From the IMG/VR virus record IMGVR_UViG_3300046048_000092, positions 1 through 42,177 of that record: 42,177 nucleotides of DNA. One strand, given 5' to 3'. Under the pieces are notes generated by a model. The model ran no database searches and was not told where the DNA came from. It saw nothing but the letters and a program-made list of their open reading frames with translations. Shown here piece by piece: positions 7,515 through 31,711 of this stretch. Source of the DNA: a virus. Positions within the stretch are counted from its first letter, which is position 1. The number at the start of each line of letters is the position of its first letter. The position numbers were made by a program, and so were the translations under genes.

Positions 7515-7771
7515 CACTTGACCTCCCAGGTCAGGACTGTGTGATTCTTGCGGTTGCCCATCGCTGCTTCCGCATCTTCCTCACGGAGATGCACGGACAC
7601 GATCTCCCCCATCGGGCCATGCACGATATACACAGCCGCGAGCTGGGGCTCGACCAGATTCATGCAGGTCGCGAACCAGCGCAAGGTGTCCGCCCTATCA
7701 TCGCCGGTCCGTTCGATCTGAACAGACATGCAGGTCTGCACGATCTTTCGGGACACATCAAAATGGGACAT
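7514..7771 (-). CDS. protein of unknown function next to ssb
   Basis: An 85-residue protein whose ATG lies inside the last codons of ssb, so the acidic SSB tail codons double as its ribosome-binding region. It contains AAVYIVHGPMGEIVSVHL, a likely beta core. No family recognised; the overlap with ssb suggests coupled expression. Confidence 0.6.
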   Translation of the reverse strand: MSHFDVSRKIVQTCMSVQIERTGDDRADTLRWFATCMNLVEPQLAAVYIVHGPMGEIVSVHLREEDAEAAMGNRKNHTVLTWEVK

Positions 7772-8117
7772 CGTCGTCCTCCGGCGCAGCGGGGCTGGAG
7801 GACTTGCTCAGGAACTCCACGGTCTGGGCAACGATCTCGGTCGTGAACACGCGGACCCCGTCCTTCTCGTACTCCCCGTACTCGATCCGCCCCTCGACCA
7901 GCAGCTTTGAGCCCTTGCGGACATACTGTGCCACGACCTCAGCTTGGCGGCCCCAGAACTTGACGCGGTGCCAGCTCGTCTTCTCCTGAAGCACCCCATC
8001 CTTGTTCTTCCACTTCTCGTTCGTCGCGAGTGAGATGCGGGCGTACGCCGTGCCGTTCGTGGTTGTGCCAGCGTCGGGGTCCATCCCCGCATTGCCGACC
8101 AAGATTGCCTTGTTCAT
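7758..8117 (-). CDS. ssb: single-stranded DNA-binding protein
   Basis: Binds ssDNA during replication and recombination. The 119-residue protein has the OB-fold order of bacterial SSB: MNKAILVGNAGMDPD, AYARISLATNEKW, TSWHRVKFWGRQAEVVAQYVRKG, LLVEGRIEYGEY, and the acidic tip PEDDDVPF that docks partner proteins. Start chosen at 8117 with GAGGA upstream; a longer frame extends into the repeat array and was rejected. Its 5' leader is the pentanucleotide array at 8164-8380. Confidence 0.93.
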   Translation of the reverse strand: MNKAILVGNAGMDPDAGTTTNGTAYARISLATNEKWKNKDGVLQEKTSWHRVKFWGRQAEVVAQYVRKGSKLLVEGRIEYGEYEKDGVRVFTTEIVAQTVEFLSKSSSPAAPEDDDVPF

Positions 8118-8163
8118 TGTACCATTCCTCGATTGTTGTTGTCCATGCCTGCCATGCCGCTTC

Positions 8164-8380
8164 AAACCCCGTCGCACCTCGCGTAACCTAGCCACGCCGT
8201 GCCTGCCTTGCCTTGCCGTGCCGCGCCCTACCTAGCCGCGCCCGACCGTGCCTCGCCTGCCATGTTATGCCATGCCGCGCCTAGCCTGACCTTCCCCGCC
8301 TTGCCGTGCCTGCCATGCCTCACCAAGCCGCACCCGGCCTCGCCGTACCAGGGCTCGCCGCGCCTCGACGCGCCTGCCTA
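8164..8380 (-). repeat. degenerate GGCNN pentanucleotide array
   Basis: The whole gap between the stop of the 162-residue gene and the ssb leader consists of about 45 tandem units, mostly 5 nt long, reading GGCNN or GGTNN on the minus strand (NN[G/A]CC on the plus strand). Five units are 4 nt (8204-8207, 8258-8261, 8297-8300, 8311-8314, 8375-8378) and shift the phase. The first two or three bases of each unit are nearly fixed and the last two vary, so it is neither a simple microsatellite nor coding. It begins at the upstream stop codon (8378-8380). Function unknown. Confidence 0.85.
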
Positions 8381-8866
8381 GCTCACTCGCTCCAATGCGG
8401 CAAACACTTCAGCGAGTTCGTTGAGACGACGATACCGATTCATCCACGCATCTGCCTCACGCAGCGCACGCTTCAGGAATTCGGCCCTCGCCTCGGGATC
8501 TTCAAGGATCTCGTCAGTGGACGCGAACACGCCCACTGAACGGACCTGATTCGGCTCGCGCTTTTCGAACTTCACGTTGTAGGCGCGCTCCTCGATCTCG
8601 GGTGATTCCGCGTAGCGTACAACGACGCTACGCAGCAGTTTGGCAGCGTTGGCGCGGTAGTGTGCTTCCGCCGCTTTCGATACACCCATGTCGAAGATCT
8701 GTGGTCGGATCGGAGACGTCTTGGAACGGGCAGCTTCCACCACAGCTCGTGATGTCAACTCACCGTTCCGCTTCTTGATCCGATCGAGTTCCTTGGCGGC
8801 TACCTCAGCGTCGACCCCCTTTGGGTCATACCCACTGACGTAGCCGAAGAATGTTGGCGTTGCCAT
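8378..8866 (-). CDS. conserved phage protein of unknown function, partner of the next gene
   Basis: A 162-residue helical protein beginning MATPTFFGYVSGYDPKG. The ATG overlaps the upstream stop as TGATG. A longer frame starting at 9109 was rejected because its first 81 residues are the shadow of the upstream gene. The C-terminal half is strongly charged (EDPEARAEFLKRALREADAW). Together with the 197-residue protein it forms a pair placed between rtcB and ssb, directly upstream of the pentanucleotide array. No enzymatic motif seen. Confidence 0.65.
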   Translation of the reverse strand: MATPTFFGYVSGYDPKGVDAEVAAKELDRIKKRNGELTSRAVVEAARSKTSPIRPQIFDMGVSKAAEAHYRANAAKLLRSVVVRYAESPEIEERAYNVKFEKREPNQVRSVGVFASTDEILEDPEARAEFLKRALREADAWMNRYRRLNELAEVFAALERVS

Positions 8867-9459
8867 CACGCACCGGCCTTGACACGGAATCGGCCGAAGT
8901 CGCCGCCCTTTTCGGGACGCCATTCGCACACACCGACACCGAACCCGGCCAGGTTGATCAGGTTCAGGATGTCTTCGGGCTGGAGCATGTCGGGATTGTA
9001 CTCCACCGTGAATTCGGTCTCCCACTTGTCGAATTGGGGACGATACCGAAGGTCGGCGGAACCTGCACCGACACGAACCGCGTCTTCTCGGAGCCGGGGT
9101 TCGGAGCATGTCATCGGAATGACACCATTCGGATCATCGCAGAGGATGAAGAGGGCCTTGCGAACCAAGGTCTTCTCCACACCGATGTCCTTGTGGGCCG
9201 CACCGATCACGCACTTTGCGAGAGCGGCGACGGGCACACCGAATTCTCCATCAGCGGTGCGGTAAGTCGCTGCTTCTGCCTCGGCAGCGGGATCCCGCTT
9301 TTCGCGAGTCTTGGTCTTCTTCCCCGCGTGCTTGTCACGCATCATCTGCTTCGCCTTCTCATTCCATTGATGCTGGATGATCGGGCTGATACCTTCGATC
9401 GTGACGATCATTCGCTCCGGCTGAACCGGTTTGAGTGTGATCTTACCTGCCATTGTCAT
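8866..9459 (-). CDS. conserved phage protein with a Gly-rich C-terminal loop
   Basis: A 197-residue protein. Recognisable blocks are ISPIIQHQWNEKAKQMM, KREKRDP-like KTREKRDPAAEAE, FGVPVAALAKCVIGAA, REDAVRVGAGSADLRYRP, and the C-terminal LINLAGFGVGVCEWRPEKGG followed by FGRF. I believe this block order recurs in other phages, usually as an unnamed protein near replication genes. The Gly-rich FGVGxxRPxxGG loop resembles RNA/DNA-binding RAMP-like folds, which is only a hint. Start at 9459 has AAGGA upstream; a GTG at 9483 is less likely. Confidence 0.68.
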   Translation of the reverse strand: MTMAGKITLKPVQPERMIVTIEGISPIIQHQWNEKAKQMMRDKHAGKKTKTREKRDPAAEAEAATYRTADGEFGVPVAALAKCVIGAAHKDIGVEKTLVRKALFILCDDPNGVIPMTCSEPRLREDAVRVGAGSADLRYRPQFDKWETEFTVEYNPDMLQPEDILNLINLAGFGVGVCEWRPEKGGDFGRFRVKAGA

Positions 9460-9728: not shown

Positions 9729-10928
9729 TCAGCCCTTCACACAGATGATCTGCTTGAGAGTGTGCTTCACCTTCACGAGGTCGGTCTGGTTCTCCATCAC
9801 CTCGTCGATGTCCTTGTACGCGCCTGGGATCTCGTCCAGAACGCCCTTGTCCTTCCGACACTCCACACCCTCGGTCTGTGCTACCAGATCTTCGGATGTG
9901 AACGTCTTCCTTGCCTGGGTGCGCGACATGCGGCGACCGGCTCCGTGCGAGCATGAGTCGAAGCTCTCCGGGTTGCCCAGCCCCTCGACGATGTAGCTTC
10001 GCGTGCCCATCGACCCAGGGATGATGCCCATGTCGCCAGCGCGCGCACGGATCGCTCCCTTGCGCGTCACCATCAGGTTCTCACCGTAGTGGTGCTCGCG
10101 TGCTACATAGTTGTGGTGGCAGTTGATTGCCTTCTCTGCCAGGCCACCGATAACTAGTCCAATGTCGTGGAATGCGGCATGGATTGAGTGCATCATCACT
10201 ACACGATTCACAGACGCATATTCCTGAGCCCACTGCACTGCTGCCCAGTACGCATCGAAGTGCTCCGTGCCTTCCGGCAAGTACGCCAGATCCTTGTCAG
10301 GCAGGTGGATGAAATGGCGCTCCATGTCCTGCTTCGCCAGCCCGATGAAGTGCATGCCGATCTTGTTGCCGATCCCGCGCGATCCACTGTGCAGCATGAT
10401 CCACACGTCGTCATTCTCGTCCAGACAGATCTCGATGAAGTGGTTGCCGCCACCCAACGTGCCGATCTGGTGCGCGAGCGTGACACGGTTCTTGTGCTCG
10501 CTCACAGCACGGAATGACTCATGGTCCTGCTCCAGCTTGCAGAACTCATCCACCAGGCCCTCGGCGATCGCGTCCTGTAGTGGATTCAGCTTCGCATGTC
10601 GATTGAACCCAACAGGGACGCGCGCCTCGATTGCGGAACGGAGCTTCACCAGCGGAATGTCGTCAGGACGAACATCGGTCTTGACCGCCATCATACCGCA
10701 GCCGATGTCGACACCCACGGCGGCCGGGATGATCGCGCCCTTCGTGGGCACCACCGACCCGATCGTTGCGCCCATGCCGAGATGGACATCAGGCATCGCA
10801 GCAACCCACGGGTCAACGAACGGCATGCGCGCAGTGTTGCTGAGCTGGACGATCGACGCTTCGTCCACGTCCGGTGTCCAGATCTTCACAGGCTTCATGC
10901 CCGTCTCATGTAGCACTCGACTGATCAT
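9729..10928 (-). CDS. rtcB: RtcB-type RNA ligase (RNA-splicing ligase)
   Basis: Joins RNA 2',3'-cyclic phosphate or 3'-phosphate ends to 5'-OH ends using GTP and Mn2+. All catalytic residues align with E. coli RtcB: Asp74 and Cys77 in VGVDIGCGM, His163 in GGGNHF, His180 in LHSGSRG, His271/272 in NCHHNYV, and the guanylylated His328 in SHGAGRRMSR. The 399-residue length is typical. Encoded together with more than 20 tRNAs and a second RNA ligase, it most likely repairs tRNAs cut by host anticodon nucleases. AGGAAGG precedes the ATG. Confidence 0.95.
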   Translation of the reverse strand: MISRVLHETGMKPVKIWTPDVDEASIVQLSNTARMPFVDPWVAAMPDVHLGMGATIGSVVPTKGAIIPAAVGVDIGCGMMAVKTDVRPDDIPLVKLRSAIEARVPVGFNRHAKLNPLQDAIAEGLVDEFCKLEQDHESFRAVSEHKNRVTLAHQIGTLGGGNHFIEICLDENDDVWIMLHSGSRGIGNKIGMHFIGLAKQDMERHFIHLPDKDLAYLPEGTEHFDAYWAAVQWAQEYASVNRVVMMHSIHAAFHDIGLVIGGLAEKAINCHHNYVAREHHYGENLMVTRKGAIRARAGDMGIIPGSMGTRSYIVEGLGNPESFDSCSHGAGRRMSRTQARKTFTSEDLVAQTEGVECRKDKGVLDEIPGAYKDIDEVMENQTDLVKVKHTLKQIICVKG

Positions 10929-21341: not shown

Positions 21342-21418
21342 TGGTGGCCCCGGTAGGACTTGAACCTACGACCTTCTGGTTCAGAGCCAGACGCTCTAGC
21401 CAACTGAGCTACAGGGCT
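21342..21418 (-). tRNA. tRNA-Gln(CUG)
   Basis: Full cloverleaf with encoded CCA. The anticodon loop is CTCTGAA on a TCTGG/CCAGA stem; T-loop TTCAAGT. The 1-72 pair is a mismatch (A-C), which suits tRNA-Gln, where an open first pair aids recognition by GlnRS. Confidence 0.9.
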
Positions 21419-21420
21419 AT

Positions 21421-21496
21421 TGGTTGCCTCGGCAGGATTCGAACCTGCGGCCCAGGGATTAGGAATCCCCGGCTCTGTCCACTGAGCTACGAGGCA
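21421..21496 (-). tRNA. tRNA-Arg(CCU)
   Basis: Cloverleaf with acceptor TGCCTCG/CGAGGCA, anticodon loop TTCCTAA, T-loop TTCGAAT and encoded CCA. Reads AGG codons. Confidence 0.92.
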
Positions 21497-21508
21497 TTGT
21501 ATCACACA

Positions 21509-21567
21509 TGGAGTGCGGGGTGGGAGTCGAACCCACCAACGATGACTTTGCAGGCCACCTCCCGCAC
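21509..21567 (-). tRNA. minimal tRNA-Cys(GCA) lacking a D-arm
   Basis: Only 59 nt including encoded CCA. Acceptor GTGCGGG/CCCGCAC (7 bp) is followed by a single A and then directly by a 6-bp anticodon stem GGTGGC/GTCATC with loop CTGCAAA. The T-arm (GTGGG, TTCGACT, CCCAC) is canonical and the discriminator is U73, the Cys identity base. There is no room for a D-arm. Confidence 0.75.
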
Positions 21568-21572
21568 TCGAT

Positions 21573-21649
21573 TGGTTGACCCGGCAGGATTCGAACCTGC
21601 GACCAACCGCGTATCAGGCGGTTGCACTACCAGACCGTGCTACGGGTCA
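21573..21649 (-). tRNA. tRNA-Ile(GAU)
   Basis: Cloverleaf with acceptor TGACCCG/CGGGTCA, anticodon loop CTGATAC on ACCGC/GCGGT, T-loop TTCGAAT, encoded CCA. Confidence 0.92.
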
Positions 21650-21655
21650 TCAAGA

Positions 21656-21731
21656 TGGAAGCCCAGGTGGGACTCGAACCCACAACCCTACTGGTTCGTA
21701 GCCAGTCGCTCGTCCATTGAGCTTCTGGGCC
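21656..21731 (-). tRNA. tRNA-Arg(ACG)
   Basis: Cloverleaf with anticodon loop CTACGAA on ACTGG/CCAGT, T-loop TTCGAGT and encoded CCA.  The 1-72 pair is G-U and the discriminator is U, both unusual for tRNA-Arg. Confidence 0.88.
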
Positions 21732-21736
21732 TCAAG

Positions 21737-21812
21737 TGGTAGAAGCGGAGGGACTCGAACCCTCGGTTGCCTTCTTGTAAGGAAGGTGCTGTCGCCGCTG
21801 AGCCACGCTTCT
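21737..21812 (-). tRNA. tRNA-Val(UAC)
   Basis: Acceptor AGAAGCG/CGCTTCT, anticodon loop CTTACAA on CCTTC/GAAGG, T-loop TTCGAGT, A73 and encoded CCA. The D-stem pairs over only three positions. Confidence 0.9.
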
Positions 21813-21816
21813 GTGT

Positions 21817-21887
21817 TGGCAGGTGTGGAAGGAGTCGAACCCTCGCTTCTGGTTTTGGAGGCCGTCAGGCACCCTGTGCTCACACCT
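21817..21887 (-). tRNA. tRNA-Trp(CCA), compact and imperfect
   Basis: 71 nt. Acceptor AGGTGTG/CACACCT, G73 (Trp identity) and encoded CCA are good. The D-arm is a 4-bp stem GCAC/GTGC with only AGG in the loop. The anticodon loop CTCCAAA is right for Trp but its stem (ACGGC against ACCAG) pairs at two of five positions. T-loop TTCGACT. It may be functional with an odd fold, or decaying. Confidence 0.65.
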
Positions 21888-21892
21888 ACAAG

Positions 21893-21972
21893 TGGTGGCG
21901 GGGGTGGGAATCGAACCCACACTCGTGCTTGGTTATGAGCCAAGTGCAGCAGCCTGTACTGCGTGCCCCGCT
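21893..21972 (-). tRNA. tRNA-Met(CAU)
   Basis: Anticodon loop CTCATAA on CTTGG/CCAAG, T-loop TTCGATT, A73, encoded CCA. The 1-72 position is an A-C mismatch, reminiscent of initiators, but the three G-C pairs of an initiator anticodon stem are missing. It could also be an Ile2-type CAU tRNA. Confidence 0.85.
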
Positions 21973-21980
21973 ACGAATTT

Positions 21981-22055
21981 TGGAGCGCCCGCCGAGACTC
22001 GAACTCGGACCCGCTGGTTGGAAGCCAGACATGCTGCCATTGACACCACGGGCGC
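21981..22055 (-). tRNA. tRNA-Gly(UCC)
   Basis: Acceptor GCGCCCG/CGGGCGC, anticodon loop CTTCCAA, T-arm CCGAG/CTCGG with TTCGAGT, U73 and encoded CCA, all consistent with Gly. One T-C mismatch at the base of the anticodon stem. Confidence 0.9.
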
Positions 22056-22057
22056 TC

Positions 22058-22144
22058 TGGTGGATGTGGTAGGATTCGAACCTACTAAGCACAACGGCAA
22101 CTGGTTTACAGCCAGACACGACTCTCCCACGTCGTCGCACATCC
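22058..22144 (-). tRNA. tRNA-Tyr(GUA)
   Basis: 87 nt with a long variable arm, acceptor GGATGTG/CACATCC, anticodon loop CTGTAAA on CTGG/CCAG, T-loop TTCGAAT, A73 and encoded CCA. The class II shape agrees with bacterial tRNA-Tyr. Confidence 0.92.
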
Positions 22145-22147
22145 AAT

Positions 22148-22222
22148 TGGTTGACCCGGCTGGTTCCGCCCCAGCGCCTCCGGTGTTTCAAGCCGACGCT
22201 CTACTGACTGAGCTACAGGTCA
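22148..22222 (-). tRNA. tRNA-Phe(GAA) with a non-canonical T-loop
   Basis: Acceptor TGACCTG/CGGGTCA and D-arm GCTC/GAGC are normal; anticodon loop TTGAAAC with a C-A mismatch closing it. The T-stem GCTGG/CCAGC is perfect but its loop is GGCGGAA in place of the TTCRANN consensus. The same type of loop occurs in the His tRNA at 31638. Confidence 0.78.
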
Positions 22223-22226
22223 TTGT

Positions 22227-22302
22227 TGGTGGAGACGGTGGGAATCGAACCCACCGCAGTCTGCTTGCAAGGCAAACTCGCCCCCTTGGTACATGCGTCC
22301 CC
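22227..22302 (-). tRNA. tRNA-Ala(UGC)
   Basis: Acceptor GGGGACG/CGTCTCC, anticodon loop CTTGCAA on TTTGC/GCAGA, T-arm GTGGG/CCCAC with TTCGATT, A73 and encoded CCA. The D-arm is poorly paired. The G3-U70 identity pair of tRNA-Ala is present (third acceptor pair G-U). Confidence 0.88.
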
Positions 22303-22307
22303 ACGAT

Positions 22308-22382
22308 TGGCTGACTCGGCAGGACTCGAACCTGCGCGCTGCGGCTTAACAGACCGCTGCTCTGCCACTGAGCTACGAGCCA
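22308..22382 (-). tRNA. tRNA-Asn(GUU)
   Basis: Acceptor TGGCTCG/CGAGTCA, anticodon loop CTGTTAA on GCGGT/GCCGC, T-loop TTCGAGT, G73 and encoded CCA. Confidence 0.93.
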
Positions 22383-22388
22383 TCGAAC

Positions 22389-22464
22389 TGGTTGCCCCGG
22401 TAGGCATCGAACCTACAACCTTCGGGTTAAGAGCCCGCTGCTCTGCCAATTGAGCTACGGAGCA
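22389..22464 (-). tRNA. tRNA-Lys(CUU)
   Basis: Acceptor TGCTCCG/CGGGGCA, D-arm GCTC/GAGC, anticodon loop CTCTTAA, T-loop TTCGATG, A73 and encoded CCA. First gene of tRNA cluster 1 in transcription order. Confidence 0.92.
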
Positions 22465-30649: not shown

Positions 30650-30726
30650 TGGTAGCCCAGGTGGGGATCGAACCCACTACCTCTGAGTTGAGAACCCAGC
30701 GACTCGACCGCTTCGTCCTCTGGGCC
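30650..30726 (-). tRNA. tRNA-Glu(CUC)
   Basis: Acceptor GGCCCAG/CTGGGCT, anticodon loop TTCTCAA on CTGGG/CTCAG, T-loop TTCGATC, A73 and encoded CCA. Confidence 0.9.
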
Positions 30727-30758
30727 ATACTGTACCACTGCCTGGGGCAGTCGTCAAG

Positions 30759-30835
30759 TGGTAGCGCGTGCGGGAATCGAACCCGCTGCTTCCGGCTTGA
30801 AAAACCGGCGACTCGACCGCTTCGTCCTACGCGCC
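30759..30835 (-). tRNA. tRNA-Glu(UUC)
   Basis: Acceptor GGCGCGT/ACGCGCT, anticodon loop TTTTCAA on CCGGT/GCCGG, T-loop TTCGATT, encoded CCA. Its 5' end overlaps the last codons of the upstream protein gene by 9 nt, so tRNA processing must cut that mRNA. Confidence 0.92.
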
Positions 30836-31096
30836 ATAGAGAATCTCCTTGAGCCCAGGCCAGCGCCCCCCGTTCTTGAACCGGAATCGCAGGGCCTTCA
30901 GCGTCGTGCGCTCGGGATCCCACTCCAGCCCGTCGCACGAGCAGTGTGAGGAGTTGACCTCGAAGAGCTTCCCACGCAGCCTGTAGATGGTGAGGGACCA
31001 GCCCTCGTACCACTCGGTGTCGTAGTGGTGATACACGACCTCAGCGCCCTCGTCGAGCGTGATGCCGTAGTCGTCGTTGATCTCCTGCCTCGTCAT
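30827..31096 (-). CDS. protein of unknown function embedded in tRNA cluster 2
   Basis: An 89-residue protein with GAGGAG before its ATG. It contains a VNSSHCSCDGLEW segment, a Cys/His pair that recurs in small phage proteins, and a C-terminal basic helix. Its stop lies inside the tRNA-Glu(UUC) gene, so excision of that tRNA would truncate the message. Confidence 0.62.
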   Translation of the reverse strand: MTRQEINDDYGITLDEGAEVVYHHYDTEWYEGWSLTIYRLRGKLFEVNSSHCSCDGLEWDPERTTLKALRFRFKNGGRWPGLKEILYGA

Positions 31097-31114
31097 CACA
31101 CTCTCCTCGAATGT

Positions 31115-31203
31115 TGGTAGTCCCGGTAGGGGTCGAACCTACACTCCCAGCGAAGGGAACCAGGGTCTGAGCCTGGCGCGTCTGCCAATTCCGCCACGGG
31201 ACC
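31115..31203 (-). tRNA. tRNA-Leu(CAG)
   Basis: 89 nt with a long variable arm, acceptor GGTCCCG/CGGGACT, anticodon loop CTCAGAC on CCAGG/CCTGG, T-loop TTCGACC, A73 and encoded CCA. Confidence 0.93.
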
Positions 31204-31208
31204 ACAAG

Positions 31209-31299
31209 TGGAGGAAGCGGTGGGAATCGAACCCACGGACCGTTGCCGGTCGCCTGCTTAGCAAGCAGGTACGCCTCACCCAGCGTGCGTGCCACTTCC
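31209..31299 (-). tRNA. tRNA-Ser(GCU)
   Basis: 91 nt with a long variable arm (GACCGG/CGGTC-type), acceptor GGAAGTG/CGCTTCC, anticodon loop TTGCTAA on CCTGC/GCAGG, T-loop TTCGATT and encoded CCA. The discriminator is U rather than the usual G. Confidence 0.9.
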
Positions 31300-31301
31300 G
31301 A

Positions 31302-31393
31302 ATGTCGGTGGGGTGCTCCATCCTGAGCTACACCAGGCCCGGTTGACCCAGGACGCTGGTGGCCCGGACTTGCACCGGGCGACCACCCCAATG
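31302..31393 (-). ncRNA. candidate circularly permuted tRNA, best fit tRNA-Val(GAC)
   Basis: Between two normal tRNAs the minus strand reads, in order: TGGGG (31390-31386), a 5-nt variable-like loop, a T-arm (6-bp GCCCGG/CCGGGC, loop TGCAAGT), CACCAG (31361-31356), a 19-nt linker, CTGGTG (31336-31331), TA, a D-arm (GCTC, AGGATG, GAGC), A, then CCCCA (31313-31309). As a normal tRNA this makes no sense, but joined end to end it gives a complete cloverleaf: acceptor CTGGTG/CACCAG, anticodon stem CCCCA/TGGGG. The flanking CCGACAT matches the GACAT of tRNA-Val(GAC) loops. Confidence 0.5.
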
Positions 31394-31394
31394 T

Positions 31395-31469
31395 TGGCGG
31401 CGTGTACGGGGATCGAACCCGTGTCCCCCAGTAGACAGCCGGGGATCCGTGCCGCTGGAACAACACGCC
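31395..31469 (-). tRNA. tRNA-Asp(GUC)
   Basis: Acceptor GGCGTGT/ACACGCC, anticodon loop CTGTCTA on a 6-bp stem CCCCGG/CTGGGG, T-loop TTCGATC, G73 (Asp identity) and encoded CCA. The D-stem is only about 3 bp. Confidence 0.88.
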
Positions 31470-31470
31470 G

Positions 31471-31554
31471 TGGAAGAAGGCGGAGGAGTCGAACCCCAAG
31501 CGTGAACGCCCCCCTGGGGTTCTAACCCAGTTTGCTCCCATGAGCGGCGCCTTC
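31471..31554 (-). tRNA. tRNA-Ser(AGA)
   Basis: Acceptor GAAGGCG/CGCCTTC, short D-arm (GCTC/GAGC with only ATGG in the loop), anticodon loop TTAGAAC on CTGGG/CCCAG, long variable arm, T-loop TTCGACT. One extra T lies between the acceptor and CCA, so the acceptor may be 8 bp. The A34 would need conversion to inosine. Confidence 0.78.
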
Positions 31555-31561
31555 CTCAAGT

Positions 31562-31636
31562 TGGTCTGAGTGGCTGGATTCGAACCAGCGCCAGCCCGCG
31601 TCCAAAGCGGGGATGCAGCCACAACACCTCACTCAG
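31562..31636 (-). tRNA. tRNA-Pro(UGG)
   Basis: Acceptor CTGAGTG/CACTCAG, anticodon loop TTTGGAC on CCCGC/GCGGG, T-arm GCTGG/CCAGC with TTCGAAT, A73 and encoded CCA. Confidence 0.9.
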
Positions 31637-31637
31637 A

Positions 31638-31711
31638 TGGTACTGGCGGACGGTTCTGCCCCGTCGTCCTCGGGTCCACAACCCGCTACTCTACTATTGA
31701 GCTACACCAGA
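31638..31711 (-). tRNA. tRNA-His(GUG) with a non-canonical T-loop
   Basis: D-arm GCTC/GAGT, anticodon loop TTGTGGA on GCGGG/CCCGA, perfect T-stem GACGG/CCGTC but loop GGCAGAA instead of TTCRANN. The acceptor pairs at six positions with a T-T mismatch at 1-72 and A73; a classical G-1:C73 pair is not seen. Encoded CCA. Confidence 0.75.

What the first reader, a model, noticed from the sequence alone, without database searches (positions are those of the whole stretch)
8164..8380. A 217-bp array of degenerate GGCNN pentamers fills the gap before ssb
Seen: about 45 units, nearly all 5 nt, with the first two or three bases almost fixed (GG then C or T on the minus strand) and the last two free; five 4-nt units shift the phase. 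It starts on the stop codon of one gene and runs into the ssb leader. It is neither coding nor a simple repeat: the units vary while the frame is kept, as if a protein or polymerase reads GG steps every half helical turn. Inference: it could be a loading or pairing site for recombination or replication proteins, an origin element, or a G-rich ssDNA/RNA track that SSB or the 197-residue partner binds to autoregulate.
Basis: partly seen in the sequence, partly recalled or inferred. Interest (0 to 1): 0.9.

Follow-up and report, generated by a model that had tools for sequence, protein, structure and literature searches.

The report
Phage RNA-guide array with VIPR protein
The odd run of five-base units is almost certainly a bank of about four guide RNAs for a recently described virus-encoded, CRISPR-like (VIPR) system in which one small protein reads two letters of every five to find rival DNA, so the finding is real but belongs to a known kind.

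Summary
The array is real. It runs from 8378 to 8145 on the minus strand, slightly beyond the reported end, and is not coding. The gene two steps upstream (9453-8866, 195 aa) is a Vipr protein. Its family profile matches the solved SUSP1 Vipr at E = 4e-40, and its predicted structure has the CRISPR Csm3/Cas7 fold. A 2026 preprint (PMC13142463) describes VIPR: Vipr, an accessory gene, and guide RNAs of alternating GGY/NN whose NN letters pair with DNA, skipping one base per step. Arrays and Vipr go together: 81 of 120 loci fetched by the GGCNN DNA pattern alone encode Vipr, median distance 13 bp, 78 of 81 on the same strand; 19 of 20 Vipr loci have an array; 52 control loci have neither. Five 4-nt GGCA units punctuate this array; across relatives they recur every 8-14 units (80% against 26% shuffled). 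They leave guides of 12, 10, 10 and 10 units, and GGCA-bounded modules are what related phages swap. The ssb gene is incidental. Targets are only tentatively assigned. Verdict: a VIPR locus of a type unlike the characterised type II.

The parts
8145..8378 (-). vrRNA (guide RNA) array: degenerate GGYNN pentamers, about 47 units, punctuated by five GGCA 4-nt units
8315..8374 (-). Guide 1, 12 units, NN = GC GA GC GA CT AC GA CG GC TT GA AT
   Evidence: boundaries inferred from GGCA punctuation
8262..8310 (-). Guide 2, 10 units, NN = AC AA G- AA CA TA GC AT AT AT (one irregular GGCG unit)
8208..8257 (-). Guide 3, 10 units, NN = GA AC CG GC TA AG GC AC AA AA
8154..8203 (-). Guide 4, 10 units, NN = AC GT TA TA GA GC GG TT GC AT; read with a 1-nt skip it spells T-V-Y-Y-[DE]-A-G-[FL]-A-[IM]
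8375..8378 (-). GGCA punctuation unit 1 (overlaps the stop codon of vap)
8311..8314 (-). GGCA punctuation unit 2
8258..8261 (-). GGCA punctuation unit 3
8204..8207 (-). GGCA punctuation unit 4
8150..8153 (-). GGCA punctuation unit 5, near the 3' end of the array
8866..9453 (-). vipr gene, 195 aa (phrog_4652), RAMP/Cas7-like protein with the C-terminal glycine-rich loop (GFGVGVCEWRPEKGGDFGRF)
8378..8866 (-). Probable vap (accessory) gene, 162 aa (phrog_15946); confined to one clade of the Vipr tree
7758..8117 (-). ssb gene, 119 aa; a neighbour, judged not to be part of the system

Best explanation
This is a VIPR locus (Viral Interference Programmable Repeat): vipr, vap, then an array of guide RNAs on the same strand. 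Most likely the array is transcribed, probably with vipr-vap (inferred). Vipr subunits then assemble along the RNA, each holding one GGY, and the exposed NN letters pair with a DNA strand, one base being skipped per step, so that the complex silences a matching gene of a rival phage or mobile element (shown by the preprint's authors for type II relatives, not here). The GGCA 4-nt units divide the array into four guides of 10-12 units (boundary role inferred from spacing and from module swapping).
For: The Vipr profile hits PDB 36pp 'SUSP1 Vipr protein' over 190 residues, E = 3.7e-40. The AF2 model (pLDDT 94.9) matches Csm3/Cas7 subunits (best E 3.7e-6). The array has GGY fixed and NN variable, as the preprint describes. 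Association from independent searches: the array query and the Vipr query return the same annotated phages. 19/20 Vipr loci carry the array downstream on the same strand, and the 20th contig ends too soon. 81/120 pattern loci have Vipr, 78 of them on the same strand, median distance 13 bp; controls 0/52. GGCA spacing: 80% at 8-14 units against 26% (maximum 35%) in shuffles, close to the preprint's 9-16 repeats per vrRNA. Near-identical phages L139-L146 keep, lose, replace or edit whole GGCA-bounded modules. Reading with a 1-nt skip gives coding-like targets: guide 4 core, 8 of 10 hits in one conserved motif GVYYEAGFA, against 1 hit for the reversed-order control; a guide of relatives L141/L142 hits a phage gene at 24/26, of which 10 positions were not in the search key and 8 of those matched.
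Against: No transcription or binding data exist for this phage. No full-length target was found for any of its guides: guide 1 (11 units) and guide 4 (10 units) have no exact match in 257 Gb of prokaryotic genomes, and the guide 3 core has none in IMG/VR. The dinucleotide spectrum of NN did not single out a codon phase. There is no structured 3' tail of the kind described for type II, and the accessory protein is not detectably related to SUSP1's.
Confidence: 0.95

Rival explanations
1. The array is a DNA or RNA site (origin, loading site or leader) bound by SSB or recombination proteins, with no guide content.
For: It abuts ssb in the window, and relatives sit near Bet/exonuclease genes in one cyanophage.
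Against: ssb occurs in only 5/100 array loci; the constant partner is Vipr. A structural site would not need NN letters that are swapped in whole modules between close relatives.
Confidence: 0.03
2. VIPR locus, but GGCA units are not guide boundaries: guides overlap ('staggered') and the 4-nt units are phase breaks with another role, such as a processing or assembly-stop signal.
For: The preprint mentions staggered arrays with overlapping vrRNAs (fig. S18, not readable here). NN next to GGCA is biased to purine-A/T, so the flanking units may be more than guide.
Against: Modules bounded by GGCA are the units exchanged between phages, and the one good target match fades exactly at both module ends.
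Confidence: 0.3
3. A decayed VIPR locus whose array no longer works: about 8 of 50 units have lost GGY.
For: Units such as GTCGA, GCCCT, AACAT, CGCGA and GACGG depart from GGY.
Against: Vipr and vap are intact open frames, and roughly 15-25% of inner units depart from GGY across intact relatives too.
Confidence: 0.07

Closest known systems
VIPR systems (Vipr + vap + vrRNA; PMC13142463, bioRxiv 2026.04.26.720920), type II of Escherichia phage SUSP1
   Same: Homologous Vipr (E 3.7e-40 to the solved SUSP1 protein), GGY/NN pentamers on the vipr strand, small adjacent accessory gene, phage-borne.
   Different: One continuous array punctuated by GGCA instead of separate vrRNAs each with a structured 3' tail; third base mostly C (in SUSP1 mostly T); accessory protein not detectably related to SUSP1's; Vipr in another clade.
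VIPR 'staggered arrays with overlapping vrRNAs' (preprint fig. S18)
   Same: Probably the same architecture: long uninterrupted pentamer arrays.
   Different: Could not be compared, as the figure and supplement are not held; the main text gives no mention of GGCA punctuation.
Class 1 CRISPR RAMPs (Csm3/Cas7)
   Same: Same predicted fold with glycine-rich loop; probably coats RNA as repeated subunits.
   Different: No CRISPR repeats/spacers and no cas1/cas2 or other cas gene among the neighbours annotated; the RNA code is gapped.

Membership tests
VIPR | Vipr protein: minimal RAMP with RRM core and G-loop | tested here: met
   Profile hit to 36pp, E 3.7e-40; AF2/Foldseek to Csm3/Cas7; invariant G...R...G in the C-terminal loop
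VIPR | Tandem alternating GGY/NN units with NN hypervariable | tested here: met
VIPR | 9-16 repeats per vrRNA | tested here: met
   12, 10, 10 and 10 units, if GGCA marks the ends; ends themselves not mapped
VIPR | Small vap gene beside vipr | tested here: met
   P0001, 162 aa, adjacent to vipr; all 37 Vipr tree rows with it fall in one clade of 43 rows. Which of vap1-6 it is could not be checked
VIPR type II | Separate vrRNAs with conserved structured 3' tail; vap1 | tested here: not met
   By inspection, no sequence lies between modules to hold a tail; no detectable homology to SUSP1's accessory protein; Vipr in another clade
VIPR | NN pair with dsDNA under a 1-nt skip rule | tested here: inconclusive
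   Guide 4 motif and the L184 site support it; no complete target found; NN spectrum uninformative
VIPR | vrRNA transcribed and bound by Vipr; represses targets | not testable with these tools
   Needs sRNA-seq, pull-down and reporter assays
CRISPR-Cas | Identical direct repeats separated by spacers, with cas genes | tested here: not met
   No long direct repeats in the window by TRF; the neighbouring proteins scanned are not cas genes
Iteron or SSB/recombination site | Fixed association with ssb or replication genes | tested here: not met
   ssb in 5/100 array loci, adjacent in 2

The most novel reading that the evidence does not exclude
A VIPR type with a self-punctuating array: a 4-nt GGCA unit, one base short, breaks the pentamer register and marks where one guide ends and the next begins, replacing the 3' tail of type II. 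Guides are then gained, lost and swapped as GGCA-bounded cassettes, an evolvable guide bank without spacer-acquisition genes.
Probability: 0.55. Interest if true: 0.7.

Novelty: new member of a known kind. Interest (0 to 1): 0.6.

Why it matters
VIPR is a newly proposed ancestor-like relative of CRISPR, so far known from one preprint with experiments mainly on type II. This locus and its relatives (including culturable Mycobacterium and Gordonia phages) show a different, continuous array design and give a concrete, testable rule for how it is divided into guides. They also show guides being edited and swapped as modules between close phages, which bears on how such systems update their targets without CRISPR adaptation genes.

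Tried and rejected
Coding repeat: rejected; the relatives' arrays mostly carry stops in most frames and the units shift register. Simple tandem repeat: TRF finds only weak, short rows. Rfam: only tRNAs, no hammerhead or other known RNA in the window. Pfam, NCBIfam and PADLOC: no family covers Vipr. Fold search of the accessory protein: no significant match, top hits weakly DNA-binding-like. NN dinucleotide spectrum as a test of codon phase: inconclusive, the genome-wide spectrum fits as well. Scanning 123-175 guides against the ~1.5 Mb in hand, and against the two candidate target genomes, for all skip lengths: no excess beyond sites fetched by the guides themselves. Complete-guide scans of GTDB: none. 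Promoter/terminator scan: at chance level. First literature searches by 'pentanucleotide repeat' and 'pentameric repeats' found nothing useful; the PDB hit led to the paper.

Full report
OBSERVATION. The minus strand from 8378 to about 8145 is a run of about 50 units, mostly GG[C/T]NN. The five-base signal is far above shuffled sequence (self-match 0.538 against at most 0.425 in 2000 dinucleotide-preserving shuffles; GG chain 17 against at most 12), and nothing like it exists elsewhere in the window. The first base of the array is the last base of the upstream stop codon.

GENES. On the same strand, in order of transcription: a 195-aa protein (9453-8866), a 162-aa protein (8866-8378), the array, then ssb (8117-7758). 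The two proteins fall in PHROG families of unknown function, phrog_4652 and phrog_15946, and Pfam has no model for them.

ASSOCIATION. A scan of IMG/VR for six GGC at five-base steps, using DNA alone, gave at least 120 loci. 81 of them encode a homologue of the 195-aa protein; in 78 of the 81 the nearest array is on the same strand, and the median distance is 13 bp. Conversely, of 20 loci found by protein homology, 19 have the array downstream on the same strand and the last contig ends too early. In annotated phages, BLASTN with the array and TBLASTN with the protein return the same set: Mycobacterium (Cheoctovirus), Gordonia and one cyanophage. The remaining protein hits (Gordonia Ecliptus and ODay, Pseudomonas LESphi2) also have pentamer arrays on inspection. 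Two array hits, only 25-33 bp long, are spurious. 52 loci fetched for other reasons have neither protein nor array.

IDENTITY. A profile of 71 homologues matches the PDB chain 36pp, 'SUSP1 Vipr protein', along almost its whole length, E = 3.7e-40. The predicted structure (pLDDT 94.9) matches Csm3/Cas7 subunits of CRISPR complexes, with a glycine-rich loop at the C-terminal end. The preprint PMC13142463 reports VIPR: Vipr, an ancestral-looking RAMP protein, an accessory 'vap' gene, and vrRNAs of 9-16 repeats of alternating GGY/NN. The NN letters pair with double-stranded DNA with one base skipped per step, mostly at codon wobble positions, and the complex silences competing phages. The window has all the sequence-level parts, so it is a VIPR locus.

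WHAT DIFFERS. The characterised type II locus (SUSP1) has separate tracts followed by a tail. Here the array is continuous. The window's accessory protein is not detectably related to SUSP1's, and Viprs that come with it sit in one clade (43 rows, 37 with it, support 94/99) away from SUSP1. In this clade, 4-nt units are mostly GGCA (332 of the 410 tabulated 4-nt GGY units over all arrays) and followed by GGC. Gaps between GGCA units are 8-14 units in 80% of 248 cases against 26% (maximum 35%) after shuffling unit order. In the window the gaps are 13, 11, 11 and 11, which leaves guides of 12, 10, 10 and 10 units. In the group L139-L146 the arrays differ by whole GGCA-bounded modules kept, lost or replaced, and by single NN changes in otherwise equal modules. 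I infer that GGCA marks guide boundaries. The preprint mentions 'staggered arrays with overlapping vrRNAs', not stated to be confirmed by sequencing; its figures could not be read here, so whether this punctuation is already described is unknown.

TARGETS. Read with a 1-nt skip, guide 4 spells TVYY[DE]AG[FL]A[IM]. Its 16-letter core has 10 hits in IMG/VR, 8 of them in the same in-frame motif GVYYEAGFA of nucleoside-deoxyribosyltransferase-like proteins; the same units in reverse order give 1 hit. The best site has 9 of 10 units exact. This points to the kind of target but not to the target itself: the complete guide has no match in GTDB. Guide 1 has no GTDB match over 11 units and guide 3's core has none in IMG/VR. 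For a 13-unit guide of the relatives L141/L142, chosen because it reads like protein, the 16-position core gave 27 hits. One of them continues to 24/26 (8 of the 10 untested positions; about 0.01 expected by chance over 27 hits, my estimate, ignoring coding bias), inside a glycine-rich 569-aa phage protein and in codon phase. The skip rule is therefore supported but not proved for this clade.

NEIGHBOURS. ssb occurs in 5 of 100 array loci and within 500 bp in only 2, so it is not part of the system. In Gordonia phage Ecliptus the pair sits with its own helix-turn-helix genes between tail genes, as a mobile cassette would.

STATUS OF STEPS. Shown here: array, association, protein family and fold, punctuation spacing, module exchange. 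Taken from the preprint: RNA binding, gapped pairing, repression. Inferred: transcription of this array, GGCA as boundary, targets.

Noticed in passing
window 21345-22464 and 30653-31711, minus strand: Fifteen tRNA genes in two clusters, alongside a phage RtcB RNA ligase (9729-10928); possibly tRNA repair against host anticodon nucleases.
   Followed up: no
L122 4987-5310, L123 4898-5167, L125 4961-5347: Hypothetical proteins annotated in public phage genomes (UmaThurman gp40, Pipp gp43, Donkeykong gp48) lie across the guide array and are probably spurious ORFs.
   Followed up: partly
L077 10559-10901, L061 11100-11306, L049 10420-10592: GGCA-punctuated arrays in phage contigs with no Vipr detected on the contig (18-21 kb fragments); possible orphan guide banks using a Vipr in trans. 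In G013 and G018 a Vipr does exist elsewhere on the contig.
   Followed up: partly
L148 3167-5604 (Gordonia phage Ecliptus): vipr-array-vap with its own helix-turn-helix genes inserted between tail assembly chaperone and tape measure genes, like a mobile cassette.
   Followed up: no
arrays of the P0001 clade: NN dinucleotides beginning with C are strongly under-represented (CN about 13% against about 31% at codon positions 1-2), unexplained.
   Followed up: no
L040 6050-6320, L026 1050-1190: Other GGC-rich runs hit by the pattern are simple, near-identical repeats (GGCGG; GGCCG palindromic), not VIPR-like.
   Followed up: no
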